In this document: positions 4,788 to 62,430 of the stretch, in pieces | How the letters are laid out: the number at the start of each line of letters is the position of its first letter | Numbering within the stretch: the first letter of the stretch is position 1 | Assembly: GCA_021203515.1 (NCBI GenBank) | Contig: JAJQAY010000042.1 | Coordinates: forward strand, 1-64,000 | DNA: 64,000 nucleotides | Direction: 5' to 3' | Source: Bacteroides sp. | GTDB taxonomy: Bacteria; Bacteroidota; Bacteroidia; Bacteroidales; Bacteroidaceae | Program-made: the position numbers and the translations under genes | Notes under the pieces: generated by a model | What the model was told of the DNA's origin: nothing | Databases searched by the model: none | Seen by the model: the letters and a program-made list of their open reading frames with translations, nothing else

Positions 4788-5582
4788 TCTCGTTAAATAA
4801 AAAAGTCTGAGGAATAATTGCCATTACAGCATAAATGGTTACTTTTGTGTCATATAGAATAAAGGAGAAAGCCCAAGAATAGAAGCCTGTTAAGGATAAA
4901 AAGATAATAAAAAAATAAGATGACAAAGATAAATGTACAGCAAACGAGTATTACCATATTGCAGGTAAATGAGAAAGATTACATTTCATTGACCGATATA
5001 GCCCGCCATAAGAGTGATGACCCCACCACTGTGATAGGAAATTGGATGAGAAACCGCAATACAATTGAGTATCTGGGCATTTGGGAAACCTTATACAATC
5101 CAGGATTTAAACCCCTCGAATTCGAGGGGTTTAGAAGGGAAGCCGGCTTGAACGCTTTTACTCTTTCTCCTCAAAAGTGGATAAACACTACCGATGCAAT
5201 AGGTATAGTATCCCGTTCGGGACGTTATGGCGGTACATTTGCCCACAAAGATATTGCATTCAAATTTGCCAGTTGGATATCTGTTGAATTTGAACTATAT
5301 CTTGTCAAGGAGTTCCAACGCCTCAAAGAACAGGAACAAGCGCAACTGGGTTGGAGCGCCAAGCGGGAATTGTCGAAGATAAACTATCGCATACACACCG
5401 ATGCTATAAAACAAAACCTTATTCCGGCGGAAGTTATCCCGCAACAGGCCTCACGCATCTATGCCAGCGAAGCCGATGTACTAAATGTGGCTATGTTCGG
5501 TGTCACCGCCCTCGAATGGCGCGATGCACACCCTGGCCTGAAAGGGAATGTGCGCGACTATGCGAGGGATAAGAGGCTCTCT
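4770..5582. repeat. Pair of 21-bp direct repeats around the KilA-N gene (4770-4790 and 5562-5582)
   Basis: The sequence GCGAGGGATAAGAGGCTCTC(T) occurs identically at 4770-4790 and 5562-5582. Copy 1 forms the right arm of a hairpin before the KilA-N gene. Copy 2 encodes the last residues of the KilA-N protein (ARDKRLS) and lacks the left hairpin arm. The layout suggests that recombination or deletion at this repeat trimmed the 3' end of the gene and fused it to downstream sequence. Confidence 0.7.
4817..4847 (+). promoter_or_regulatory. Bacteroides-type promoter for the KilA-N gene
   Basis: A -7 box TACTTTTG (4840-4847) matches TAnnTTTG. An upstream TTG (4818-4820) sits about 19 nt before it, as expected for the Bacteroides -33 element. 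It is about 70 bp upstream of the KilA-N start. Confidence 0.5.
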
Positions 5583-5588
5583 TTGTAA
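4920..5588 (+). CDS. KilA-N domain DNA-binding protein, C-terminally truncated
   Basis: This 222-aa protein resembles the KilA-N family of phage and accessory-region DNA-binding proteins. The N-terminal part (about 10-130) has the KilA-N pattern: EKDYISLTDIARHK, then GNWMRNRNTIEYLGIWE, then TFAHKDIAFKFASWISVEFELYL split over the core. A predicted helical segment (LVKEFQRLKEQEQ) follows. Homologues I recall are about 260-290 aa and continue after the GNVRDYA-like motif. Here the protein stops 8 residues after DYA, inside the second copy of the 21-bp repeat. The C-terminal domain therefore appears to have been lost by recombination. Its own promoter suggests expression as a single gene. The target and regulatory role are unknown. 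The truncation is inferred from family length and the repeat. Confidence 0.75.
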   Translation: MTKINVQQTSITILQVNEKDYISLTDIARHKSDDPTTVIGNWMRNRNTIEYLGIWETLYNPGFKPLEFEGFRREAGLNAFTLSPQKWINTTDAIGIVSRSGRYGGTFAHKDIAFKFASWISVEFELYLVKEFQRLKEQEQAQLGWSAKRELSKINYRIHTDAIKQNLIPAEVIPQQASRIYASEADVLNVAMFGVTALEWRDAHPGLKGNVRDYARDKRLSL

Positions 5589-5665
5589 TTTGATAACGCA
5601 TTTTTATCATCTTATCAGATGACAAATAAAAATAAAAGCTTATATTTACAGAAATATCGTGAGTA

Positions 5666-5812
5666 ATGAAAAAGTATACAAAAGAAGAAGCTATAAAAGC
5701 GGTAAAAAGAATGATTGCCGAAAAGAAAGAGGTCATCAGATGGATGAACTCTAATGAGTCGTATACTGATTTGAAAAACAAAGGTATCACTTTAGGAAAA
5801 ATAGGTGACTGA
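5666..5812 (+). CDS. Small 48-aa basic protein, first gene of a two-gene cassette
   Basis: This frame is too short for the supplied track. ATG at 5666 opens a 48-residue protein beginning MKKYTKEEAIKAVKRMIAEK and ending GITLGKIGD. It is highly charged and probably helical. Its stop (5810-5812) is 2 bp before the ATG of the DUF6169-like gene at 5815, so the two are almost certainly translationally coupled. I do not recognise a characterised family. The small-basic-protein plus larger-partner layout resembles a toxin-antitoxin pair, but nothing in the sequence proves that. Confidence 0.6.
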   Translation: MKKYTKEEAIKAVKRMIAEKKEVIRWMNSNESYTDLKNKGITLGKIGD

Positions 5813-5814
5813 TA

Positions 5815-6325
5815 ATGGCAGAAGAACCGGATCGTGCGATAGTATCCTTGAATGCTATAAATCAGAAAGCTCCCTATCATGTTCTGTTTAAGGAAAGTCA
5901 GCCTAATGTACTGCAATTTATAACCGACAAGGGGTTAATTTACAATATAACTTTCGTCGTAGACCGGACGTTAGTATTATCCAATATTTTTCAGCTTGTC
6001 ATAGAAGAGGCGCTTCAAATGCATGCTTCCCATGATCCTAAAATAGAACAGACAATAATAGCCATAGTAGAAGATTTCTTTTCGGATAAAGAAAGAGTAC
6101 TTTCTTTTGTCTGTGATACTAAGGGAGCGCATGAAGTTGCTCGAAACTTATTGTTTCATAAGTGGTTCACTAAATATAATAAAAAAGAATTACTGAAAAA
6201 TAGATGGTGTCGTACATGCTGATGAAACAACTTTTTATTCCTCAATTATTTGTAGACAAAGAAATCCCAATCTTGAAATCATCAAGTCTACCTATATGGA
6301 CTTGATAGATGAGTTGCAGAAATAG
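5815..6325 (+). pseudogene. DUF6169-like protein, one frameshift near 6200
   Basis: The reading frame from 5815 gives 135 aa and stops early at 6222. Just before that, an A-run (CTGAAAAATAG) appears one base too long. In the adjusted frame the protein continues KIDGVVHADETTFYSS to DLIDELQK and stops at 6323-6325, giving about 169 aa. The pattern VLQFITDKGLIYNITFV, a central IIAIVEDFF segment and a late LLFHKWF is what I remember of the Bacteroidetes family DUF6169, whose function is unknown. It is coupled to the 48-aa gene upstream and convergent with the MNT nucleotidyltransferase downstream. There is no signal peptide or membrane segment, so it should be cytoplasmic. Family assignment is moderate; the reconstructed C-terminus is well supported by its reading sense. 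Confidence 0.6.
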
Positions 6326-6360: not shown

Positions 6361-6675
6361 TCATAATACAATGCCTTCGTTTACTATATTTACATAAAAC
6401 GGTGTTTTGAACGGACGGTTTTCCCAAAGCTTTTTCAGCATGACAATCGGACTGATAGAAATGCCTGTCTTTAATTCTAATTCATAAAGAGGAAGAGTTA
6501 TAGCTTCTTCCTGTGTTAATGTCAATTTCTCGCCATCAACCAGAATTAGCAGGTCTATATCGCTGTCCGGACGAGCGTCTCCACGAGCTTCCGAACCAAA
6601 CAGAATGGTCTTTGCCGTAGGAGCTATATTCTGTATAGTCTTCCTGATTTGTTCAACAATCTCTATCCGTCTCAT
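6361..6675 (-). CDS. MNT-type minimal nucleotidyltransferase without HEPN partner
   Basis: I place the start at 6675 (MRRIEIVEQIRK) rather than 6732, because the upstream extension is hydrophobic and not conserved in this family. The resulting 104-aa protein has the polymerase-beta superfamily motif GSEARGDARPDSDIDLLI, with the GS pair and the two catalytic aspartates (SDIDL) intact. MNT proteins usually act as antitoxins that AMPylate HEPN RNase toxins. Normally a HEPN gene sits directly downstream. Here the downstream space is filled by the convergent DUF6169-like gene 36 bp away, so the gene is an orphan. It may act alone, regulate a distant partner or be a relic. Confidence 0.82.
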   Translation of the reverse strand: MRRIEIVEQIRKTIQNIAPTAKTILFGSEARGDARPDSDIDLLILVDGEKLTLTQEEAITLPLYELELKTGISISPIVMLKKLWENRPFKTPFYVNIVNEGIVL

Positions 6676-6995
6676 AGCTAAAAAAATGAGTATATAGAAC
6701 GAAGATACAACATTATCTCTAATAAGCAACATTCTCTGCTTTTCTTTCCGGGTTCATCACTCTGCTTCTTCCTCTTTCCCGGCCTTCTTTCCTGTTTTCT
6801 TCCCTTTTCTTCTCTTAAATAGTGTTACTGAATACCTGATACCTTGTTGTAGTATGTTTTGGAAGGGATACTCAAGGTTTTCATCCCCTTTTGGAAATGT
6901 TCTTTTGGTTGCCGCCGAAGTTGCCGCATCTTTGCAGCGTTAACGTTGACAAAGAGATTTAAAAACGAAAGTAGTAACTAAAAAACATTTGAATT
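6676..6995. other. Intergenic region with a long pyrimidine tract and the HU gene promoter
   Basis: About 85 bases (6733-6817) are strikingly pyrimidine-rich on the plus strand. The minus strand there opens a Lys/Glu-rich frame that ends in EEEAE, but it has no convincing start codon, so I do not call a gene. The right half contains a clear promoter (6904-6934) for the HU-like gene. Confidence 0.5.
6904..6934 (+). promoter_or_regulatory. Bacteroides-type promoter for the HU-like gene
   Basis: A -33 TTTG (6904-6907) and a -7 CATCTTTG (6927-6934) are separated by 19 nt. Only the first base departs from the TAnnTTTG consensus. The leader to the start codon at 6996 is about 55 nt. Confidence 0.55.
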
Positions 6996-24557: not shown

Positions 24558-25811
24558 ATGAAAACAAGACAGTATTTGTGGTTATTATTGGCAGTTGTAT
24601 TATTGCTGCCGGTTCAGGAAATCTCTGCTAAGGGAAAAAAGGAGAAAGAGTTGACGGATCGGGAACTTTGGTGCAGTGTCATGTATCAGATGGCTGCGCC
24701 GGTGCTCAGCAATATGAGTGAGGGGAAACTGAGGGAAAATATGATGTTGGAGTTGAGCCCCACTTGGGACGGACGCGACAAGCAGGTGGCATATATGGAA
24801 TACTTCGGGCGACTGATGGCGGGGCTGGCACCGTGGCTGTCGTTGCCGGACGATGATACGGCGGAAGGTGCGCAGCGCAAGCAACTTCGCGAGTGGGCGT
24901 TGAAGAGCTACGCGCAGGCTGTCGACCCCGAAAGTGAGGACTACTTGTTGTGGCGTAGCGAGACGCAAACGCTCGTGGATGCCGCTTTTCTTGCCGAGAG
25001 TTTCCTGCGCGGTTACGATGTGCTTTGGATGCCGCTGGACAGCCTGACCAAGCAGCGTTATATTGCAGAGTTCACCCAGATGCGCCGGATAGACCCGTAT
25101 TACAACAACTGGATGTTGTTTTCCTTGACCATAGAATGCTTCTTGCAGCGGGCAGGAGCCAAGAGTGATACGTACCGTATCTCTTCCACTCTCCGGCAGA
25201 TAGAAAAATGGTACGTGGGTGACGGTTGGTACTCGGACGGGCCGGACTATTCTTTCGACTATTACAATAGTTTCGTGATACAGCCCATGTATGTGGAATG
25301 CCTCGAAGTTGCCACCAATGGCGGAAAAAGGAGAGTCAGAACGGCTCCCGCCTGTAACTTTGAGCGTGCGCAGAAGCGCATGCAACGCTTCGGCGTGATA
25401 TTGGAACGCCTCATTTCTCCGGAAGGTACTTTCCCGGTATTCGGACGCTCGATAACCTATCGCACCGGTGCGCTCCAACCGCTGGCCCTGCTGGCATGGC
25501 GTGGCTGGCTGCCCGAAGAATTGCCGAACGGACAAGTGCGTGCAGCCATGACGGCCGTCATTAAACGCATGTTCGGCAAGCCGCGCAACTTCAATGAAAA
25601 GGGTTTTCTGGTGCTGGGCTTCAATGGTTCCCAACCCAAGATTTCCGATTACTATACCAATAACGGCAGCCTCTACCTTACCTCGCTCGGATTTCTTCCG
25701 TTGGGTCTGCCCGCCGACCATCCTTTCTGGACAGATGCCCCTCAGCCGTGGACGTCCAAGAAAGCATGGGAAGGGGAGGATTTCCCCAGGGGCCATGCGT
25801 ATCATGAATAG
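24558..25811 (+). CDS. DUF2264 secreted protein (possible GH154-type beta-glucuronidase), intact copy
   Basis: This 417-aa protein has a signal peptide (LWLLLAVVLLLPVQEISA) and an all-helical (alpha/alpha)6-like body with repeated aromatic motifs: SPTWDGRDKQVAYMEYFGRL, ALKSYAQAVDP, WYVGDGWYSDGPDYSFDYYN, SPEGTFPVFGRS. These fit DUF2264 (PF10022). I recall that some DUF2264 proteins from Bacteroides arabinogalactan loci were assigned to CAZy GH154 as beta-glucuronidases, but I cannot verify that here. A close paralogue lies at 36727-37979 in the same PUL. The gene directly precedes hybrid regulator 1. Expected location: periplasm. Confidence 0.78.
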   Translation: MKTRQYLWLLLAVVLLLPVQEISAKGKKEKELTDRELWCSVMYQMAAPVLSNMSEGKLRENMMLELSPTWDGRDKQVAYMEYFGRLMAGLAPWLSLPDDDTAEGAQRKQLREWALKSYAQAVDPESEDYLLWRSETQTLVDAAFLAESFLRGYDVLWMPLDSLTKQRYIAEFTQMRRIDPYYNNWMLFSLTIECFLQRAGAKSDTYRISSTLRQIEKWYVGDGWYSDGPDYSFDYYNSFVIQPMYVECLEVATNGGKRRVRTAPACNFERAQKRMQRFGVILERLISPEGTFPVFGRSITYRTGALQPLALLAWRGWLPEELPNGQVRAAMTAVIKRMFGKPRNFNEKGFLVLGFNGSQPKISDYYTNNGSLYLTSLGFLPLGLPADHPFWTDAPQPWTSKKAWEGEDFPRGHAYHE

Positions 25812-25866
25812 CGTTATTGCGGCAGAAAAAAGACAAGAGGGAAAGACTGTTGTCGGATAAATTCTT

Positions 25867-25874
25867 TATATTTG
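25867..25874 (+). promoter_or_regulatory. Bacteroides -7 box for hybrid regulator 1
   Basis: TATATTTG fits TAnnTTTG and lies about 40 bp before the regulator start. A TTG at 25850 is closer than the normal -33 spacing, so only the -7 element is well supported. Confidence 0.4.
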
Positions 25875-25905
25875 CCACGATTTTACACATCTTTCGTTGT
25901 AAACA

Positions 25906-28900
25906 ATGGTAACTATGAAAGCAAAACAGCAGATCCTTTCCCTTTGTTTCTGGATATTTTTCCTCTTTACATATCAGCAGGTTGCAGCAATATCGCAGCC
26001 TTTTTCCTTGTTGTTTAAAACCTCTCCGGTACTGAATGAATTGCCTAGTAAGGATGTACAGTCTGTTTATCAGGATAGGGACGGTTATATCTGGATTTCC
26101 ACCCGTAACGGGCTTTTTCAGTACGACGGTTACTCTCTCACCACTTATAAGTCCAATCTCTTTCATTCCGATTTGTTGAATAATAACAATATTATGTGTG
26201 TGGGTGAGGACGGCCATCATCGTTTGTGGATAGGTACTTACAGTGGATTGAATGTATTGGATAAGCGGGCGGGCAATAGAAAAAGTGGTAGCTCCCGGAT
26301 TGACGGGTAACGGTGTTGCCTGCATCCTGATTACTCGTGATGACCGCATCTGGTTTGAAGCAGATAATGGGTTGTACGAATACCGTGAAGGCGAACAAAA
26401 CCCTTATCTGCTTTATAGCGAGAAAAACACGGAAGGCACATTGCCTGTTGTATCTATCAAATCTCTGTTCGAAGACGATCGGGGGGATATTTGGATCGGA
26501 ACGTGGGAGCATGGTTTGTTCCGTTATGAGAGCACTTCCGGCAGATTTCTGAGATATCCGAAGATGAATGAGCTAAACTCGGCTCATGTCGTTTTTCAAG
26601 ACAGTCGCAAGAATATCTGGGTGGGGACATGGCGCGGCGGATTGACGCTGCTGAAAGATGCTTATCAACCGGAAAAAACTAGCTGGGTAACTTTTCGATA
26701 TGACGAGAAGAACCCTTATAGTGTTTCGGATGATATAATCTATGCGATTTCGGAAGACCCGAACACACACGCCTTGTGGGTGGGAACACGTAAAGGACTA
26801 AGTATACTCCCTCAAAGAGAAGAATATACACCTACGGTTTCTTTTGAAAATTATTATCCGGCCGATTCGGAACATTCTATATCCAGTGACGAAGTGGCTT
26901 CTTTGTTGTGCGACCGCCAAGGTTTGATGTGGCTTGGTATGATTGGCGGAGGAGTTAATATAGTCAATACGCATGTTCCAGATTTTGAGTGGGACCGCTT
27001 GCCTGAGGCTAAACGTTTGTTGAAAACCTCTTCTGTGCGTAGCCTTTTTGTTGGATGATGAAAATAAACTGTGGCTGGGAGTTGGCACTTACGGATTGGG
27101 GGTGAAAGACCGGAAAACCGGAAAATTTACTTTCTATACGCAAATGCCGGAATTTGCCGGTTATACCAAAATTCCTACGGTAATGTCCATTAAGCAGTAT
27201 TCGGTAAACGGACATATCTGGGTTGCGGCTTATAATGGCGGCATTTATGAGATAGACAAACATGTTCCGGTGGCTCAACGGGTGAAGAAATATACTTCTC
27301 ATGATGTGGAATGGTTGTCTTCGAACTATGTGTATAACATATTTGAAGATTTGAAACATAATCTCTGGTTTGTCACCCGGAATGGGGTTTCTATGCGTAA
27401 TGCGGATGGAAAAGCTGTGCGATTTGACTCCTTGCAGGTGGGTAACTCCTTGATGAAAACATTCTTGTCGTACAGGTTGTCGAAGGAACAGACGGAGAAA
27501 TATGGGGAGCTACCAATACGCATGGCGTGATACGGCTAAAGAAGCAGGGGGGCATTATACGGTTTCAGAATACTCTGCGGAAAATGGAAAATTGAATAGT
27601 GTTCATGCGGACTGCATTTATAAAGATGAGCGGGGCGCATTTGGACCGGAACGGGCGGAAGTGGTCTGAACCTCTATGAGGAGCATACAGACGCTTTTCT
27701 GCCTGTACATGCCCAGTGGAATTTGCCGGGCGATGCGGTTGTCAGCATTCAAGAGGACAAGAACGGCAATTTATGGTTAGGAACTAATGCCGGATTGGTA
27801 AAACTTTCGGTTGCCGGTGATTTGGAAAATATAACATTCCGCTTATATACTACAGTAAACGGTTTACAAGATAACTTGTTTAATCGTGCAGCCGTAACGG
27901 TGGCGCCTGACGGTGAAATATTCTTTGGGGCATCGCGGATACAATAGTTTCTATCCCGATAGGCAAAACGATCAGGCTTTCTTGTCTCCCGTTGTAGTGA
28001 CGGACATTAAGATTTTCAATCAATCCTGAAGTGTTATCTCGGATAAAGAACTGAGAGACATATCCGATTTGGCACCTGGTTTTGCACGCAAGATACAATT
28101 AGACTATCGACATAATAACTTTACTGTCGAGTTTTCGGCACTGGAGTATGCCAATCCGGATCGCAATCGGTATGCCTACAAACTAGATGGCTTCGACACC
28201 AATTGGCAGTACACCGATGCTTCCAAACATTTTGCCTACTACAACAATCTGAAGCCTGGTGATTATACCCTCTATTTAAGGTCATCCAACTCCAATGGCA
28301 TTTGGAACGACAATACACTTAAAATGCAAATCATTGTTCTGCCGCCGCCTTGGAAGACGTGGTGGGCCTATACTATATATATAGTATTAATTCTGGGTGC
28401 TGCTTATTATGCCTATTTGGTAGTGCGTAACCGCATCCGCCTGCGCAATGCCCTGCACCTGCGCGAAATGGAACAGGCGAAGTCGGAAGAAGTAAACCAT
28501 GCCAAACTGCAATTTTTCACTAACATCACACACGAGTTACTTACTCCGCTAACAATCCTTTCCGCTTCGGTAGACGAGTTAAAGCACGTTGCTCCCGCCC
28601 ATAAAGGGCAGTACTCCGTAATGACAAACAATATCAACCGCCTGATACGCTTGTTACAACAGACACTTGAGTTCCGCAAGGCGGAGACGGGCAACTTGAA
28701 GTTGCGTGTTTCGCAGGGAGACCTAGCATTGTTTGTACAGCGCAGCCTCGACAGTTTCCGCCCATTGATGAAGAAAAAGGATATGGAGTTCCGTCTTTAT
28801 TGCAACCCCAAACCGTTTGAAGCCTATTTCGACTCCGACAAACTGGATAAGATACTATATAATTTGCTTTCCAATGCTTCCAAGCATAATCGTCCGGGAG

Positions 28901-30084
28901 GAGTGGTGAGCGTTGAACTGACGGGCAATGAAGACGGTTTTGCAGGTTTAGTGGTAAAGGACAATGGCTCCGGCATCTCGAAGGAAGCCCAAAAGGAACT
29001 CTTCAAGTGTTTTTACGAAGGCGATTATCGGAAATTCAAAACAATCGGCACCGGCATCGGGCTGTCATTAGTGCGCGACCTTGTTGTCTTGCATCACGGC
29101 ACGATTACTGTAGAGAGCGAAGAGGGACACGGCACGGCATTCATTGTCGCCATTCCCGTATTGCACGATGCATATGCGGAAACAGAAATAGACGATGTGG
29201 ATGTACCCGATGTGCTCGAAGATGTTGTCGGAAAAGACGTTGACACAGATACTGACGTGATGGAAACAAGCAATGCTGAGGTCTCCGTCTCGAAGTCTGC
29301 CCTGCTTTTAGTGGAAGACAACGAAGACCTGTTGGCACTTATGGTGAAACTGCTTGGGCATGAATACTCTGTATATACTGCTACAAACGGTCAGAAAGCG
29401 CTCGACGTTGTGCAACGGGAAGACATCGACTTGATTGTTTCCGATGTCATGATGCCCGTCATGGATGGCTTTGAACTGTGCAAGACTATAAAGAACAATC
29501 TCGATACCAGCCATATTCCCCTTATCCTGCTCACTGCCAAGAAACTGGAGGAAGACCGTGTAGAAGCCTACGAATCGGGAGCTGACGCCTTTATTACCAA
29601 ACCCTTCAACCTGAGCGTTCTTCACGCCCGCATCGGCAACTTGCTGAAAGCGCGGCAACGTGTCATGAAAGACTTCAAGAAGCAACTTGTATTCGAAGCC
29701 AAAGAATTGGACTACACCAGCCTTGACGAAGATTTCCTGCAACGTGCCATCGAGTGCGTGAATCGTCATCTCAATGATCCGGAGTTCGACCAAACGCAGC
29801 TTCTTGAAGAAATGCACACTACTAAGTCCACTTTCTTCTGCAAACTGAAGTCACTCACTGGGCTTACCTATTCTTCTTTTATCCGCAACATCCGCATGAA
29901 GGCTGCTTGCCGCATTATGGAAGAGAAAAAGCGAGTGCGCGTTTCAGAATTGGCTTATGCTGTGGGCTATAACGACCCGCGCTACTTTAGCGCCTGCTTC
30001 AAGAAAGAACTCGGTATGCAACCTTCTGAATATATGGAGAAGTTTACGAGTGGTGGGGTAGTAGAAGACGATACGGTGAAGTAA
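25906..30084 (+). pseudogene. Hybrid two-component system regulator 1 of the large PUL, at least six interruptions
   Basis: Frames from 25906 to 30084 build one protein of about 1,390 aa. Order: signal peptide; two sets of reg_prop beta-propeller repeats (DGYIWISTRNGLFQYDGYSL, DIWIGTWEHGLF, KNIWVGTWRGG); a Y_Y_Y domain (YAYKLDGFDTNWQYTDA); one transmembrane helix (TWWAYTIYIVLILGAAYYAY); HisKA with FFTNITHELLTPL; HATPase (VKDNGSGIS, GTGIGLSL); a receiver with IVSDVMMPVMDGF; an AraC-type HTH at the end. Breaks near 26275, 27050, 27525, 27640 and 27940 plus TGA at 28027-28029 all fall in the sensor half; the kinase-regulator half (28069-30084) is clean. By family, the periplasmic propeller senses an oligosaccharide and the HTH activates the adjacent susCD. 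Start could also be 25915. Confidence 0.85.
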
Positions 30085-33767: not shown

Positions 33768-35734
33768 ATGAATAAGATAAATAAAATAATAGCTTGCCTG
33801 ACTATTGCGGGCTGTATGTGTTCTTCATGTTCGGAAGACTTCTTGAAGCCGGATCCTCTATCGTTCTACGAACCGGGAAAAACATTTACCACGGTAGAAG
33901 GCTTGGAATCTGTATTGGCAAATCTGGACCGTCATATACGTACTTACTGGACGAACTATCAGGGAAGGGATATTGCCGTTCCTATTTATTCGCAATACAT
34001 GTATTCTGATTTGAATGTGGCAGCTAAGACGGACCAAAGCACTATTTTTGCCGATATTGCTACCCGTCTGACCCCTACTGACGGTTTGGGAGGTGATGAC
34101 AGCGAAGTCAATCAGTTGGGTTATTTCTGGGGCAAACTTATACCGCTATAAAATCTGCCAATACGGTAATCAGCTATATAGATAAAGTAGAAGGATTGAA
34201 AGAGGATATAAAGAATGAATATTTGGGTAGGGCTTATTTCCATCGTGCATTCCGCTATCTGTCGTTGGTATTCATGTTCAATGATGTTCCTTATGTGTCA
34301 CGCATTGTCGACTCCCCGAAGTTTGACTATCGCAGCACTTCCCGTGAAGCCATCCTGAAGAAGATGACGTTGGATATGGAATTTGCTGTTCAATGGGTAC
34401 CCGACCAAAAGGATATGGCAATGATCGGTATGGTGAATAAAGGGGCTTGCTGTATGTTGTTGGCAAAACTTTATCTCTCTTTGGGACGCTGGGATGATGC
34501 AATAAAACAATGTGATGCTTTGATTGGCGATCCTAATTATGAACTGATGAAACAGAGCTTTGGTACTTTTGTCAAACCTTTCAATAACGAGGCATGGCCT
34601 GTGACACGCAATGTCATTTGGGACTTACATCGTCCGGAGAATAAGTTGATTGCAGTCAATAAAGAAGTTATATTCGGCATGCCTGATCGGGGTATAGGTT
34701 CAAGTAACTCTTTTATTTATTTCAATACAATGCGTTCTTTAGTTCCATTCTGGAACAGTGCAAATCTGAAAACTCCCGCTCCTGATGGAAAGAAGTTCAT
34801 AGAGGCCTATGCGCGTTCTGATTCAAAATATAGTGGAAAATATGATTATACTAGGTCATTGGGACGTGGCACGGGTTATATTCGTCCTACCTATTATGCC
34901 CAACATGGCATGTGGTGTGTGAATGGAGTGGATGACAAAGGGGACTTGCGCCATAATTCGACTGTCGGTAATTGGGCTGCGACTTCCATGATGAAAGTGA
35001 ACAGCAAGGATTCTAAATTCTTGGGAGAATATGTACAGCAAACTTGGACTACAGATACTATTCGTGAATGGTATGGCTGACCTCATTATAAAGTATATTT
35101 GTTAGACCAGAATGCAGAATCGAAACAAAGTTCTACCAACTGGAATGGAGCAAACGGCAGTTCGACTACTGCCGGTAATGCCGACTGGTACTGCTATAGA
35201 CTGGCTGAAACCTACTTGTTGCGCGTTGAAACTAAATTTTATAACGGTGACCCGGTTGGAGCTGCCGCCGACGTGAACGAAGTACGCAAAAGAGCCCAGT
35301 GCGAGCGGTTGTATAACACTGTGACTATTGGTGATATCGTTGACGAACGTGCACGCGAACTTTACATGGAAGAATGGCGGTATATGGAACTTAGCCGTAT
35401 TTCATATTGTCTGGCACTAAGCGGAAAATCGGATGAATTTGGTAATACATACAATCCCGAAACTTACGATAAGCAGGAAGGAACTGATGCAAACGGCGGA
35501 AGTTATTGGTATCAACGTATCGTTCACTATAACGACTTCTACAATAAAAATCCTAAACTATTGGTGAAGAATCGTGCTTATGCAATTGATAAGCATAATT
35601 TGTACTTGCCTATCCCGCAATCAGCTATTGATGCCAATCGTTTGGGTAAGTTACGTCAAAACTATGGATACAATGGCTATGACGAAACTATTCCGATGTG
35701 GGAAACTTGGGAAGAAGCCGAGGCTAATAACTAA
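33768..35734 (+). pseudogene. SusD1 surface glycan-binding lipoprotein, one frameshift and one TGA
   Basis: The signal MNKINKIIACLTIAGCMCSS ends in a lipobox with Cys about 21 and is followed by EDFLKPDPLSFYEPGKTF, a standard SusD opening. The helical TPR body (RAYFHRAFRYLSLVFMFNDV, LLAKLYLSLGRWDDAIKQCD) and the late RLAETYLLRVE and ERARELYMEEWRYMEL motifs are classic SusD/RagB. The frame slips near 34135 (FWGKLIPL should read FWGETYTAIKSAN), and TGA at 35078-35080 sits where WYGWPHYK is expected, so Trp (TGG) is the likely original. The product would be about 655 aa. It forms the lid of SusC1 and selects the glycan. Confidence 0.85.
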
Positions 35735-54830: not shown

Positions 54831-57800
54831 ATGAAAAATATAGTGAGTTTCTGTCCTGTTTACAGGTGTTTTGTTTTATCTATTTGTCTGCTATTGCTTT
54901 CATCCCTGCTTAGGGCCAGTGATGCGCGGGGAGATATAGGATTGAAATTCAAACAGATATCTACATTCAATGGATTGCCAACCGATGAAGTCCAAAAAAT
55001 CTATCAGGATAAAGAAGGGTTTATATGGTTTGCCACCCGATATGGGCTTTGCAAATATGACGGTTATCAGGCTACGGTCTATAAATCAAATTTGTATGTT
55101 CCGGGAATGCTTACCAATAATAATATTTATTGTCTTGCAGATGATTATGACGATAATCTTTGGATTGGTACGCAAGGGGGATTGAATGTGCCTAATAAAA
55201 GGACAGGAGAGATACGTCAATATAGAACTCCGTCCATCCCCGACAATTTAGTCTCTTGCTTGTTGGTTACTAAAGATAATACGGTGTGGGTGGGTACGGA
55301 CGGTGGTTTGTGCCGGTATATGGCAGATAAGGACTCTCTTCTTGTATATGATGACCGTATAAGTGAGGGTGTATTCAAGAAAACGGTGGCGAAGTCTTTG
55401 TTTGAAGACTCGGATGGGGATGTATGGATTGGTACTTGGTCTGATGGGCTTTATCGTTACTCTCCGAAGCCCGGAAAGTTTTTTGAATATCCCCCCCCAT
55501 CAATGAGCGTAACTCTGCGCACGTTATTTATTAGGATATCGATAAGCGAATTTGGGTAGGGGGATGGGATTGTGGATTATCTCTACTGAATGATCCCAAA
55601 GATATGGAAAAGGTGTCTTATACCCGGTATGTGCATAAGACGGGAGATGATACGACTCTTTCGGATAATATTGTTTATGATATTGTAGAAGACTTGCATA
55701 CGCGGACTTTGTGGATTGGTATACGTGCCGGCTTGAGTATTATGGAGCATGATAGACCGGGACATTTCATTAATTATAAGTCGAGACACGCTTCGCATTA
55801 TATTCCCTGCGATGAAATAAATTCGTTGTTGCGAGACAATGCCAATCATATTTGGTTAGGTTCCATCGGAGGCGGTGTATTGATGGTGGACACCCAATTG
55901 CCGTTATTTACTTCCCACTCTTTGAATTTGGTGGAAGATGATGTACCTACCACTGCGGCCCGTGCCATTTTTGCCGACGATGAAAAGAACCTTTGGCTGG
56001 GAATTGGCAGTTATGGGTTGGCCCGTAAGGATTATAAAACCGGCAAGTTGACCTTTTTCTCTCATATCCCTGAGTTCTCGGGTATATCCAGTGTTCCCAC
56101 TATCAATACGATTGTCCAGCGTAAGAATGGAGAAATCTGGTTCGGAACTTATGATGGCGGAATTTTGGTGTACAAAAAAGGAGAAAAGGTGAAAGTGCTG
56201 CGAACTGAAAATGCGCCTTATCTCTATTCTTATTGTGTCTTGGCGTTGTATGAGGATAGTCGGGGGAATTGTTGGGCAGGCTGTCGGGGCGGAATGGGCG
56301 TAAGTTTGGCAGATGGCGGGTTTTATAAATTCGGAGTGCTTCCTTTTGAAAATGGCGGTTTGGCGGATTGGTATCATGTAAGAGATATCGTGGAAGATAC
56401 GGATGGCAGTATTTTGGTGGCTACGGGTAATTGTGGTATTATACATATCACTGGCAACGTACAACATCCGGAAACATTGAAGTATCAGAGTTATAATTTT
56501 GAGAACGGACAACTGGCTGTCAATACGGTGCTGTGCCTGCATGTGGATGAAGCGGGCAGGCTGTGGGCAGGTACCGAAGGGGGGCGGTTTGTATTTGTAT
56601 GACCGTAAGAAACTGTCGTTTACTGAAAAGAACCGGGAGTACAATATTCCCGGTGATATGGTTGGCTCCATAGAGGAAGACGATCAAGGTGCGTTGTGGA
56701 TAGGTACAAATAGAGGACTGGTACGGTTGATTGCTTCTGCGGATGGAACTTTATTTTCCACTCGTGTTTATACGATAGCAGACGGGTTGCAGGATAATTC
56801 CTTTATCGCACATTCTTCTTGCAGCCGGGGAGGTGAATTGTTTTTTGGAGATAACAAAGGGTATAATAGCTTTTCCCCGGCGATGCTAAAAGAGGGTAAT
56901 GCAAACGTTCCTTATTTAATTACGGATATTAAGATATTCAACCGTTCGCTCGCTTCTTTGGAACCGGAAGTTCGCGAGCGAATATCTCCCGTGATGCCTT
57001 CATTTGTACGGAAAATAGAATTGCCTCACGACTATAATAATTTCAGCGTTGAGTTCGCTTCGCTTACTTATAAAAATCCGGAGTTGAACCGTTATGCCTA
57101 TCAACTTGTGGGTTTTGATAATAAATGGCAATATACGGATGCCAGCCGTAGGTTCGCCTATTACAATAATCTGGAAAGCGGCACCTATAAATTCCGTTTG
57201 AAAGCTACCAATGAAAACGGAATTTGGAGTGGGGAAGTCCGTGAACTGACGGTGGTCGTGTTACCGCCATTTTGGGCTACCTGGTGGGCGTATGTCATAT
57301 ATGTACTGATAATAGCAGCAGTGATTTATTGGATATTCCGCACAGCCCGTAACCGCATGATGCTACGTAATGAGTTGCGCTTGCGTGAATTGGAAAAATC
57401 GAAGGCTGAAGAACTAAACCATGCGAAACTCCAGTTCTTCACAAATATTACTCATGAGTTGCTTACTCCGCTTACTATTATCTCTGCCGCAGTAGATGAA
57501 CTGAAAATGCAGGCACCGGGATATGATGAACTTTATGCGATGATGTCCGGTAATGTCCGTCGCCTTATCCGTTTGCTGCAACAGATATTGGAATTCCGTA
57601 AAGTTGAAACGGGTAATCTGAAATTGCGCGTATCACCAGGTGATATTGCCGCCTTTGTGAAGAATGAGGCGGAAGCATTTCAACCCTTGATAAAGAAACG
57701 CAAAATGCACTTCTCCGTACTTTGCAATCCGGAGTCGATTATCGGTTGCTTTGATACGGACAAGCTGGACAAGATATTGTATAACCTCCTTTCCAACGCT

Positions 57801-58976
57801 GCCAAATATAATAAGGAAGGAGGCTATATACAAGTAACTTTGTCGTATGCCGAGGATAATAAAGATTTTGTCCAATTACGCGTCAGGGATAACGGTTGCG
57901 GCATTTCCAAAGAGAAGCAAAAAGAATTGTTCAAGCGTTTTTATGAAGGGGATTATCGCAAGTTCAATACGATAGGAACGGGTATCGGGCTGTCTCTGAC
58001 GAAAGATTTAGTCGAATTGCATGGCGGAACTATCCATGTGGAAAGTGATGAAGATAAAGGTACGGAGTTTATAGTGACTCTGCCCGTGGATCGCTCTTAT
58101 TTTAAGGAAGAGCAGATTGATGAGAAGGCGGTGCTGCCGGTGCAGAACATGATTACTTATGAGGATGACAGTTCGGAGGATACTGCCGATCTGATTTCTT
58201 CCGGAAATGAAAAACTGCATAACCTGCTTGTTGTTGAAGATAATGAGGAATTGCTCCAACTGATGATGCGTCTGCTTCATCGCGATTACAATGTGTTTAC
58301 TGCCGAAAACGGCAGAGAGGCGATTACTATTGTAGAGAATGAAGATATAGATTTGATTGTTACCGATATAATGATACCCGTAATGGACGGCATTGAACTT
58401 TGCAAATATGTGAAAAGTAAAATAGAAATCAGTCATATCCCTGTCATTTTGCTTACTGCTAAAAATAAAGAAGAAGACCGGGCAGAAGCGTATGAGATAG
58501 GTGCGGATGCATTTATCAGTAAACCTTTCAATCTTGCAGTGTTACATGCTCGTATTCGTAACTTGTTGAAATACAAAGAACGTATGGCAAAGGATTTCAA
58601 AAACCAATTGGTGTTTGAAGTGAAAGACCTGAACTATACCAGCATCGACGAGGAGTTCATGCAGCGTGCCATTGATTGTGTGAACCGACATTTGGAAGAT
58701 TGCGAGTTTGACCAGACGCAGTTTGTAGATGAGATGGGGACCAGTAAATCCACTCTTTACAAGAAACTCAAATCGCTTACCGGGCTGAACACTTCCGCCT
58801 TTATCCGTAATATCCGTTTGAAGGCGGCTTGCCGCATCATGGAGGAGAAAGGAAATGCCGTTCGTGTCTCCGAACTGGCTTATGCGGTAGGCTTCAATGA
58901 TCCGAAGCATTTCAGTTCCTGCTTCAAGAAAGAATTCGGGATGCTGCCAACGGAATATTTGGAACGGTTTGTGTAA
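54831..58976 (+). pseudogene. Hybrid two-component system regulator 2, two frameshifts
   Basis: Three frames join into about 1,380 aa: a signal peptide, propeller repeats (EGFIWFATRYGLCKYDGYQA, DVWIGTWSDGLYRYS, HIWLGSIGGG), Y_Y_Y (YQLVGFDNKWQYTDA), a transmembrane helix (TWWAYVIYVLIIAAVIYWIF), HisKA (FFTNITHELLTPL), HATPase (VRDNGCGIS, GTGIGLSL), a receiver (IVTDIMIPVMDGI) and an AraC-type HTH. Breaks are in a run of eight C near 55493 and a G-run near 56586, both in the sensor. All signalling motifs are intact. It shares architecture and many residues with regulator 1, but the propellers differ, so a different ligand is likely. It would control susC2/susD2 and probably the GH115 gene. Confidence 0.87.
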
Positions 58977-59101: not shown

Positions 59102-59163
59102 CCCCTGTCTTCGTAGCTGGAGTATGGAGACGGTGATTAATGTTTAATCTTAAAGTTTATACA

Positions 59164-62100
59164 ATGAAAAGACAAAAATTCCTTGAAGGACCTGGACTGA
59201 AGGCGTGCTTCGCTTTGGCAGTTTATATGGTTCTTTTGTTGAATGTTCAGTTCTTGAACGCACAGAGTTCAACAATCAATGTAAAAGGTGTGATGAATGA
59301 TGCAATGGGGCCGATTATCGGTGCCAGTGTCGTGGAAAAGGGAAATACGGCTAATGGTACGATTACCGATATGGATGGTAATTTTTCTCTTTCAACAAGG
59401 CCGGATGCAACACTTACAGTCTCTTATATAGGATATAAGACGCAGGAAGTGCGGGTAGTAGACGGAAAGGCAATCAATGTTACATTGAAGGAGGACACTG
59501 AGGTGCTGGATGAAGTCGTGGTCGTGGGTTTCGGTACACAAAAGAAAGTAAACTTGACGGGGACTGTCGATGTAATCGACAACAAGCAGTTACAGGAACG
59601 CCCGGTAGCAAATGCGGTACAAGCATTGCAGGGTGTAGTGCCCGGTTTGCAGATTACACAAGGCAGCGGTAGTTTGGAGTCACGTCCCAGTATCAATGTT
59701 CGTGGTACGGCTACTATCGGTGAGGGCTCTTCGGGTAGTCCGTTGGTATTGATTGATGGTATGGAGGCTGATTTGAACTCTATTAATCTGCAGGATATTG
59801 CCAGTATTTCTGTATTGAAGGATGCGGCAGCTTCATCTATTTATGGTTCTCGTGCACCGTTCGGTGTTATTTTGGTAACTACGAAAGCCGGTGGAAGCGA
59901 GGGGAAGGTGTGTATTAATTATAATAATAACTTCCGATTCAGTACACCTGTGCACATGAACAACATGATGAACTCATTAGATTTTGTTACATGGGTAAAC
60001 GATACGCATATCAATAAAGGAGATAATGCCTATTTTGAAGGTACACGTTTTGACCGGCTTGTGGAGTATTTTTATGCCAAGCCTTATAGCCAGGGTGTGA
60101 GGATGACTGATAGCGGTGAACTTGTATATGCTTTGCCGGAATATAATGACAACGGACAGTGGAAAGGAGGTTTCTCTACCGGTGTGGATGATGTGGACTG
60201 GTATGATATGCTTTATAAAGACTGGACTTTTCTCAAGAACACAATTTTAGCGCAAACGGCGGCAGTAAGAAATTCAATTACTACGCATCCGGGAGTTACT
60301 TCGGTCAGGGTGGCTTTTTAAATCTCGGTGATGAGGATTTGAAACGTTATACGGCAACGGTGAAGATTAACTCTGAATTGACGGACTGGTTGAAGTTTCA
60401 CTACAGCATGCGTTTCACGCGCGAAGATTATAAACGTCCGGCAGCATCGACAGATTATTTATATGAAAGTTTGGCATTGAAGGCTTGGCCGGTAATCCCT
60501 GCTTATGATCGTAATGGATACCATTTCTTTAGTGATGATACATCGGTATGGGGATTGGAATCCGGTGGCACGGACAAGACACAGACTGACAATACTTACC
60601 ATCAACTGGGCTTCACGATAGAACCGGTGAAGAACTGGATAACCAGCGTCGATTTTAATTATCGCATCAAGTCGGCAAACCGTTATTGGGATAGTCAGGC
60701 TATTGTCAACCATGATTTGAATGGAATCCCTATGTGTGCAAGTCTGCAACGAATGTGCACGAGGATTATCTGAAGAATAATTACTATAATTTCAATGTGC
60801 GTTCGGAATACTCTCACACATTTGCCGAAAAGCACAACTTCCATATTCTTGCCGGTATGCAGATTGAAGACCTGAAAGAAGCCAAATTCGGACTACAACG
60901 TAATGGCATTATGATTGCCAGCAAACCGGAAATTAATATGACTACGGGACTGGAAAACGGTACGGCTGTTACTCCCAGCCTCAATGGAGAACGCAATGAA
61001 TGGGCAACGGTAGGTGTTTTCGGGCGTCTGAACTATGACTATAAAGGTAAATATTTGTTGGAAGCCAATGTTCGTGGCGATGGTTCTTCACGTTTCCGTA
61101 AAGGAAATCAGTGGAAGGTTTTCCCTTCTGTTTCTTTAGGTTGGAATGTTGCTGAAGAAAGTTTCTTTGAAGGTGCACGGGGTTTTATGGATATGTTTAA
61201 GTTGCGTTTCTCTTACGGTTCGCTAGGTAATCAGAATACAGACAATTGGTATTATACGTTCCAGACACCTTCCGCATCACCTTCGGGCGGTGGTTGGTTA
61301 CAGAATGGTGTGAAGCCGAATGTGGCGAGTGCGCCGGGATTGGTTTCCGAAACGTTGACTTGGGAAACTATTGAAACCTATAACGTCGGTGTTGACTGGG
61401 GTTTCCTGAATAATCGTTTGACCGGTTCTTTTAACTGGTACATCCGTAATACGAAGGATATGGTAGGTAAGCGCCCGCGTTGCCTGACATCTTAGGAACG
61501 AATGTTCCTAATATCAATAATACCGACTTACGTACACAAGGTTGGGAATTTAGTATCGGCTGGAAAGACCGCCTGAAGAACGGATTATCTTATGGCGCAA
61601 GATTTATGCTTTATGACTCTCGTACCAAGATTACGCGCTATCCTAATAATCCGACTCATTCTATAGATACTTATGTAGAAGGAAGGTATATCAATGAAAT
61701 CTGGGGATATGAAACAATCGGTATCGCTAAATCGGATGATGAAATGAGTGCTCATCTGGCAACATTGGATAAAGGTGGGCAGAATGCCTTGGGCTCTGAT
61801 TGGAAGGCCGGAGACATCATGTATAGAGACCTGAATGGCGATGGTAAAATCTCCGGAGGAGCCGGAACGGTGGAAGACCCGGGTGACAGAAAGGTTATCG
61901 GTAACAGCACGCCTCGTTTCCAATTCGGTTTGGATTTGAATGCCGCATGGAAAGGATTTGATTTACGTGTCTTCTTCCAGGGAGTGATGAAACGTGATTA
62001 TTGGCAGGGTAGTGATTACCTGTTCGGAGCGACCGGTAGTGGACTTTGGGGAGCTTGTGGTCTTGATGCTGTAGGTGATTATTATCGTGATGAAAATACC

Positions 62101-62430
62101 TGGTCGGTTCAGGAAGGATATCGTGATGTCAATCAGAATGCCTACTTACCACGACCATTGTACAGTAATAAGAACTTCCAGACGCAGACACGTTATCTGC
62201 AAAATGCGGCTTATATCCGTTTGAAGAATCTATCTGTAGGCTATACTTTACCGGATAATCTGACTTCGAAATGGGGCATTCAGAAGATACGTGTCTATTT
62301 CTCAGGTGAAAACCTATGGACGGGAACCGGTCTGGCAGAACAGTTTGACCCGGAAACAATCGGAACGAATAAGGGTAATGCTTATCCTTTGTCCAAAACA
62401 TTATCTTGTGGTTTAAGTCTAACTTTCTAA
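59164..62430 (+). pseudogene. SusC2 TonB-dependent glycan transporter, three frameshifts
   Basis: I start at 59164 (MKRQKFLEGPGLKACFALAV) rather than 59140, because this matches SusC1 and gives a proper signal ending NAQ. The CarboxypepD-like domain, DEVVVVGFGTQKKVNLTG, the plug (LQGVVPGLQIT, LVLIDGMEADL, VLKDAAASSIYGSRAPFGV) and the barrel run through four frames and end CGLSLTF, a correct beta signal. Slips lie near 60275, 60750 and 61478 (GGTAAGCGCCCGC, one G short of GKAPALPDILG). Reconstructed length is about 1,088 aa, the same as SusC1. Its first 130 residues nearly repeat SusC1, but the plug and barrel differ, pointing to a different oligosaccharide. Confidence 0.87.

What the first reader, a model, noticed from the sequence alone, without database searches (positions are those of the whole stretch)
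5666..6325. Two-gene cassette: 48-aa basic protein coupled to DUF6169-like protein
The genes are separated by 2 bp, the first is tiny and charged, and the second belongs to a family of unknown function. The layout resembles toxin-antitoxin or small-regulator pairs and sits among orphan and phage-like genes. The small gene is absent from the ORF track and could be overlooked elsewhere too.
Basis: inference. Interest (0 to 1): 0.5.

Follow-up and report, generated by a model that had tools for sequence, protein, structure and literature searches.

The report
Conserved small-gene plus DUF6169 pair
A tiny basic protein is encoded directly in front of almost every DUF6169 gene across the Bacteroidota, so the two form a real, unstudied, mobile two-gene unit that looks like a toxin-antitoxin module but has not been tested.

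Summary
The 48-aa ORF (5666-5812) and a DUF6169 gene (PF19666, E 2.7e-14), 2 bp apart, are really there. As assembled, the DUF6169 frame ends at 6222; its last third (to 6325) lies in another frame. This assembly is full of frame breaks, so that break is probably an artefact. The small ORF is under purifying selection (pN/pS about 0.04-0.2 in close pairs). It usually follows its own Bacteroidetes -7 box (61 of 77, against 6.5% background). The pair stands alone among unrelated neighbours. It occurs patchily, and on a conjugative plasmid beside a restriction-modification system. DUF6169 is predicted to have a GNAT-like fold without the acetyl-CoA loop. Several DUF6169 genes are deleted or stopped while the small gene is intact; I saw no clear reverse case. 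Best reading: an undescribed toxin-antitoxin-like module, with the small protein as antitoxin lacking a recognisable DNA-binding domain. Toxicity and binding are untested. No paper in the library mentions DUF6169.

The parts
5641..5648 (+). candidate -7 promoter box TATATTTA (one mismatch to TAnnTTTG) 25 bp before the small gene
   Evidence: position-conserved box: 61 of 77 homologous small genes have an exact TAnnTTTG within 70 nt upstream, background 6.5%; consensus from PMC7366714
5666..5812 (+). small basic protein, 48 aa, proposed antitoxin
   Evidence: ORF; homologues at 102 of 103 intact DUF6169 loci; purifying selection
5815..6222 (+). DUF6169 gene, in-frame part as assembled (135 aa), proposed toxin or effector
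   Evidence: PF19666 E 2.7e-14, profile 1-55 of 92
6196..6200 (+). A5 run where the reading frame breaks; probable assembly error
   Evidence: comparison with intact L018/L122; SusC-like and other genes of the same window are also split
6197..6325 (+). C-terminal third of DUF6169 in the shifted frame
   Evidence: matches the DUF6169 HMM at 125-161; aligns to the intact relative

Best explanation
A stand-alone, horizontally moving two-gene module that works like a type II toxin-antitoxin pair. SHOWN: one compact unit, usually with a promoter-like box just upstream; a 40-60-aa, mostly basic protein encoded first; DUF6169 second, starting at or inside the end of the small gene; selection on both proteins. 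INFERRED: the small protein (a charged amphipathic helix plus a short hydrophobic tail) is made first and in excess, binds DUF6169 and holds it inactive. When the locus is lost or the small protein is depleted, free DUF6169, a GNAT-like fold without the canonical acetyl-CoA loop, slows growth, most plausibly by acting on a translation component. The window copy is probably intact in the organism but is frame-broken in this assembly.
For: 102 of 103 intact DUF6169 genes have the small gene (100 automatically, L030 by reading, L035 with its full start unclear); controls 4.6%. Fixed geometry: stop at -8 nt in 31 cases and +35 nt in 24 cases relative to the domain start. Small-gene pN/pS 0.04-0.2 in close pairs. 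TAnnTTTG box in 61 of 77 against 6.5%. Small and DUF6169 divergence correlate (Mantel r 0.72). Neighbours have no common theme, including housekeeping genes. Patchy: 48 of 399 family genomes, 10 of 396 phylum genomes. On conjugative plasmid pRUNSL03 next to a recombinase and an MvaI-type restriction-modification system. Known toxin-antitoxin genes lie nearby at several loci. DUF6169 deleted or stopped with the small gene intact: L045, L047, L055, L084, L123, L124, L152, L234. Two AF2 models (pLDDT 89, pTM 0.85-0.86) whose top PDB matches are mostly GNATs.
Against: No growth or binding data. The small protein has no recognisable DNA-binding domain. DUF6169 lacks the [RQ]xxGx[GA] acetyl-CoA motif at the expected place, and the fold matches are weak (best E 3.8e-4, TM 0.4-0.5). 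The decay asymmetry is only suggestive: cases not found through the small gene number 10, chance about 0.08 by gene length, and single-base breaks may be assembly errors. Proximity of other toxin-antitoxin genes was not compared with a control. PADLOC gives nothing robust.
Confidence: 0.5

Rival explanations
1. A non-toxic two-subunit accessory protein: the small protein is an obligate folding partner or subunit of DUF6169, and the complex does something useful such as modifying a surface, polysaccharide or ribosomal component. No addiction is involved.
For: The same co-conservation and coupling would result. GNAT-like fold. Several Bacteroides copies sit inside capsule or O-antigen gene clusters (L103, L104, L094, L097, L109).
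Against: Only about 7 of 40 loci have polysaccharide genes nearby; other neighbours are unrelated. A subunit would not be expected to survive alone, yet the small gene is intact at several loci where DUF6169 is deleted.
Confidence: 0.27
2. The small ORF is mainly a leader or uORF that controls translation of DUF6169 by coupling; its peptide has no function of its own.
For: It is first, short, close to the promoter-like box, and abuts or overlaps the DUF6169 start at fixed distances.
Against: Strong amino-acid-level selection, pN/pS about 0.04-0.2 in close pairs, and a shared protein motif. It persists after DUF6169 is deleted.
Confidence: 0.08
3. An anti-phage defence pair in which DUF6169 is an abortive effector released upon infection, with the small protein as its inhibitor.
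For: Patchy distribution, plasmid carriage beside a restriction-modification system, companion toxin-antitoxin modules. It overlaps mechanistically with the main reading.
Against: No robust PADLOC or PHROG match; no consistent defence-island neighbours.
Confidence: 0.12

Closest known systems
GNAT toxin-antitoxin modules (TacAT, AtaRT, KacAT; PMC9177977, PMC9431474)
   Same: Two-gene unit, small partner plus a protein of about 160 aa whose predicted fold is GNAT-like; carried on chromosomes and plasmids; multiple copies per genome occur.
   Different: Those antitoxins carry DUF1778 (ribbon-helix-helix) or DUF4065; here the partner is 40-60 aa with no such domain. DUF6169 lacks the acetyl-CoA loop motif, and no sequence link to GNATs was found.
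PF19666 DUF6169 (Pfam family of unknown function)
   Same: The second gene is a member by profile score.
   Different: The Pfam model covers only 92 C-terminal positions and does not include the small partner or the N-terminal half.
DUF3791-DUF3990 pair (next to the second, truncated copy in the same genome, L105)
   Same: Compact two-gene accessory unit of unknown function in the Bacteroidota.
   Different: Unrelated sequence; merely adjacent to one DUF6169 relic.

Membership tests
DUF6169 (PF19666) | profile score above the curated cut-off | tested here: met
   53.5 bits against a cut-off of 27
DUF6169 (PF19666) | full-length domain in one open frame | tested here: not met
   in-frame part covers profile 1-55 of 92; the rest is in another frame, probably an assembly error
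type II toxin-antitoxin module | two adjacent or overlapping co-directional genes with the small partner first | tested here: met
   102 of 103 intact loci
type II toxin-antitoxin module | both genes encode proteins under selection | tested here: met
   pN/pS
type II toxin-antitoxin module | horizontal mobility, patchy distribution, carriage on mobile elements | tested here: met
type II toxin-antitoxin module | DNA-binding domain for autoregulation in the antitoxin (frequent, not universal) | tested here: not met
   no Pfam or NCBIfam DNA-binding domain in the small proteins
type II toxin-antitoxin module | toxicity of one gene and neutralisation by the other protein | not testable with these tools
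   needs expression and binding assays
GNAT-type toxin-antitoxin | GNAT fold of the toxin | tested here: inconclusive
   two AF2 models, best hits mostly GNATs but E 3.8e-4 or weaker and TM 0.4-0.5
GNAT-type toxin-antitoxin | acetyl-CoA loop [RQ]xxGx[GA] | tested here: not met
   3 of 77 sequences have any match, none at the strand4-helix3 loop
GNAT-type toxin-antitoxin | DUF1778 or DUF4065 antitoxin | tested here: not met
   no such match; definition from PMC9177977
PADLOC anti-phage systems | match to a described defence protein | tested here: not met
   only isolated weak matches, E about 0.005, to different models

The most novel reading that the evidence does not exclude
A previously undescribed toxin-antitoxin family of the Bacteroidota in which a 40-60-aa peptide, in effect a stand-alone neutralising domain without DNA-binding part, controls a toxin with a GNAT-like fold that does not use the usual acetyl-CoA site.
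Probability: 0.4. Interest if true: 0.65.

Novelty: new variant of a known kind. Interest (0 to 1): 0.52.

Why it matters
A Pfam family of unknown function with no paper in the library turns out to be half of a conserved pair whose other half is often missed because it is short: it is annotated on the Runella plasmid but not on the Spirosoma plasmid. Recognising the pair gives a direct experiment (express each gene alone and together) and would explain why DUF6169 genes sit at unrelated places in gut Bacteroidota and on plasmids. If it is toxic, it adds a toxin fold and an unusually small antitoxin.

Tried and rejected
Leader-peptide-only reading: rejected as the main reading because of protein-level selection. 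Polysaccharide-locus function: 7 of 40 loci only. Relation to DUF6934 suggested by motif resemblance: hhalign probability 6%, not supported. Sequence relatives with solved structures: none. PHROG and PADLOC: nothing robust. Viral-contig scans: none; two unannotated, unverified 'phage' clones from faeces carry the pair. First reading of the window copy as a decayed pseudogene was withdrawn after finding that neighbouring genes are also split by frame breaks. Broad alignment A3 could not be used for a collection scan.

Full report
OBSERVATION. The window has an ATG ORF at 5666-5812 (48 aa) and, 2 bp on, an ORF at 5815 that matches Pfam DUF6169 (E 2.7e-14). The latter is open only to 6222 and covers profile positions 1-55 of 92; the missing C-terminus is in another frame to 6325. 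Aligned to the closest intact relative (L018 = L122, Bacteroidaceae MAG RGIG1657), one extra A in a run at 6196-6200 accounts for the break. I first took this as decay, since the copy also lacks the near-invariant Asp of the CDTxD motif. But long genes of the same window are broken in the same way: a SusC-like region at 59.1-62.4 kb lies in four collinear frame segments, and genes at 33.8-35.7 kb and 24.6-30.1 kb look similarly split. ORFs in this assembly are shorter than in control loci. So the frame break is probably an assembly error; this cannot be decided here.

IS THE PAIR REAL? DUF6169 was searched in 200-400 genomes each of the family, order and phylum and by a named-genome scan. Of 103 distinct intact DUF6169 genes, 100 have a 36-70-aa charged small ORF whose stop lies within 60 nt of the domain start. 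L030 has one on reading and L035 has the same C-terminal motif with an uncertain start. Only a divergent Chitinophaga locus (L158) has none. With stricter criteria only 11 of 239 control genes have such an ORF. The distance is fixed within clades: stop 8 nt before the domain start in 31 loci, 35 nt after it in 24. Two sequence styles recur...MLxDKxAxR...KGIKFAxPL (A1, the window's style) and ...KEE...F..A..KK... (A2). In close pairs pN/pS of the small gene is 0.04-0.2, as low as for DUF6169. Small and DUF6169 divergence correlate (Mantel r 0.72).

A UNIT OF ITS OWN. Of 77 small genes, 61 have TAnnTTTG, the -7 box of the Bacteroidetes primary sigma factor (PMC7366714), within 70 nt upstream, mostly 25-40 nt before the ATG; random 70-mers have it in 6.5%. 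The window has TATATTTA there, one mismatch. Around 40 loci the neighbours are unrelated, including housekeeping genes. About 7 of 40 are near polysaccharide genes, notably several Bacteroides copies in capsule-type clusters. Known toxin-antitoxin genes lie near some copies: HipA (L170), PIN (L186), YoeB-like (L200), Phd/YefM-YoeB (L103), nucleotidyltransferases (L188); no control rate was computed. On conjugative plasmid pRUNSL03 the pair (WP_169705254.1 and WP_013921727.1, overlapping) lies between a recombinase and an MvaI-type restriction-modification system. On a Spirosoma plasmid the small gene is unannotated in the table held.

DECAY PATTERN. DUF6169 is truncated, deleted or stopped beside an intact small gene at L045, L047, L055 (this same genome, contig C81), L084, L123 (nonsense), L124 (stop at codon 2, small gene lengthened by 5 aa), L152 and L234. 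Single-indel cases (the window, L005, L006, L027, L036, L061) may be assembly errors. No clear case of a disrupted small gene with intact DUF6169 was seen; L092 and L097 are unclear or have both ends affected. Counting only cases not found through the small gene (10), chance by gene length is about 0.08: suggestive only.

FOLD. Two AF2 models from different first sequences (pLDDT 89; pTM 0.86 and 0.85) give the order a-b-b-b-b-a-b-a-b-b-a, which I read as the GNAT core order b2-b3-b4-a3-b5-a4-b6-b7. In both searches the best PDB matches are mostly GNATs: DfoC, YncA, RimI, Naa10, phosphinothricin acetyltransferases (E 3.8e-4 at best, TM 0.4-0.5). The acetyl-CoA loop [RQ]xxGx[GA] is absent at the strand4-helix3 loop, and conservation sits in CDTxD..xxR.RLF..WF. 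So the fold is GNAT-like; membership and activity are not shown.

MECHANISM. Best supported: a toxin-antitoxin-like module, antitoxin first. Shown: unit, order, promoter-like box, coupling geometry, selection, mobility. Inferred: toxicity, binding, translational target. Rivals are a two-subunit accessory enzyme, a leader ORF, and a defence pair.

KNOWN OR NEW. No paper in the library mentions DUF6169. GNAT toxin-antitoxin systems use DUF1778 or DUF4065 antitoxins (PMC9177977), which this is not. I file it as a new, unproven variant of the toxin-antitoxin kind.

Noticed in passing
window 24558-30084, 33768-35734, 54831-58976, 59140-62430: Many long genes (SusC-like, SusD-like, sensor-regulator-like) are split into consecutive frame fragments, so this assembly has a high indel error rate; frame-dependent findings from this genome need caution.
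   Followed up: partly
L055/L105 (own genome, contig C81, 23239-23382): A second small gene of the same family with DUF6169 truncated to about 15 codons and directly followed by a DUF3791-DUF3990 pair (PF12668, PF13151).
   Followed up: yes
window 6361-6732, minus strand: Stand-alone MntA-like nucleotidyltransferase (PF01909) convergent with the pair; weak NCBIfam resemblance to HalB and MntA antitoxin models. A HEPN partner was not looked for.
   Followed up: no
window 4920-5588: KilA-N domain protein (PF04383) directly upstream of the pair.
   Followed up: no
L091 (G698 contig C56, 1-10000): Two divergent DUF6169 pairs in tandem, each with its own small gene; genome G770 carries six DUF6169 copies on different contigs.
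   Followed up: partly
L103, L104, L094, L097, L109: In Bacteroides and a near relative, several DUF6169 pairs sit within capsule or O-antigen-type gene clusters (UpxY-like regulator, flippases, glycosyltransferases, RmlA and RmlB).
   Followed up: partly
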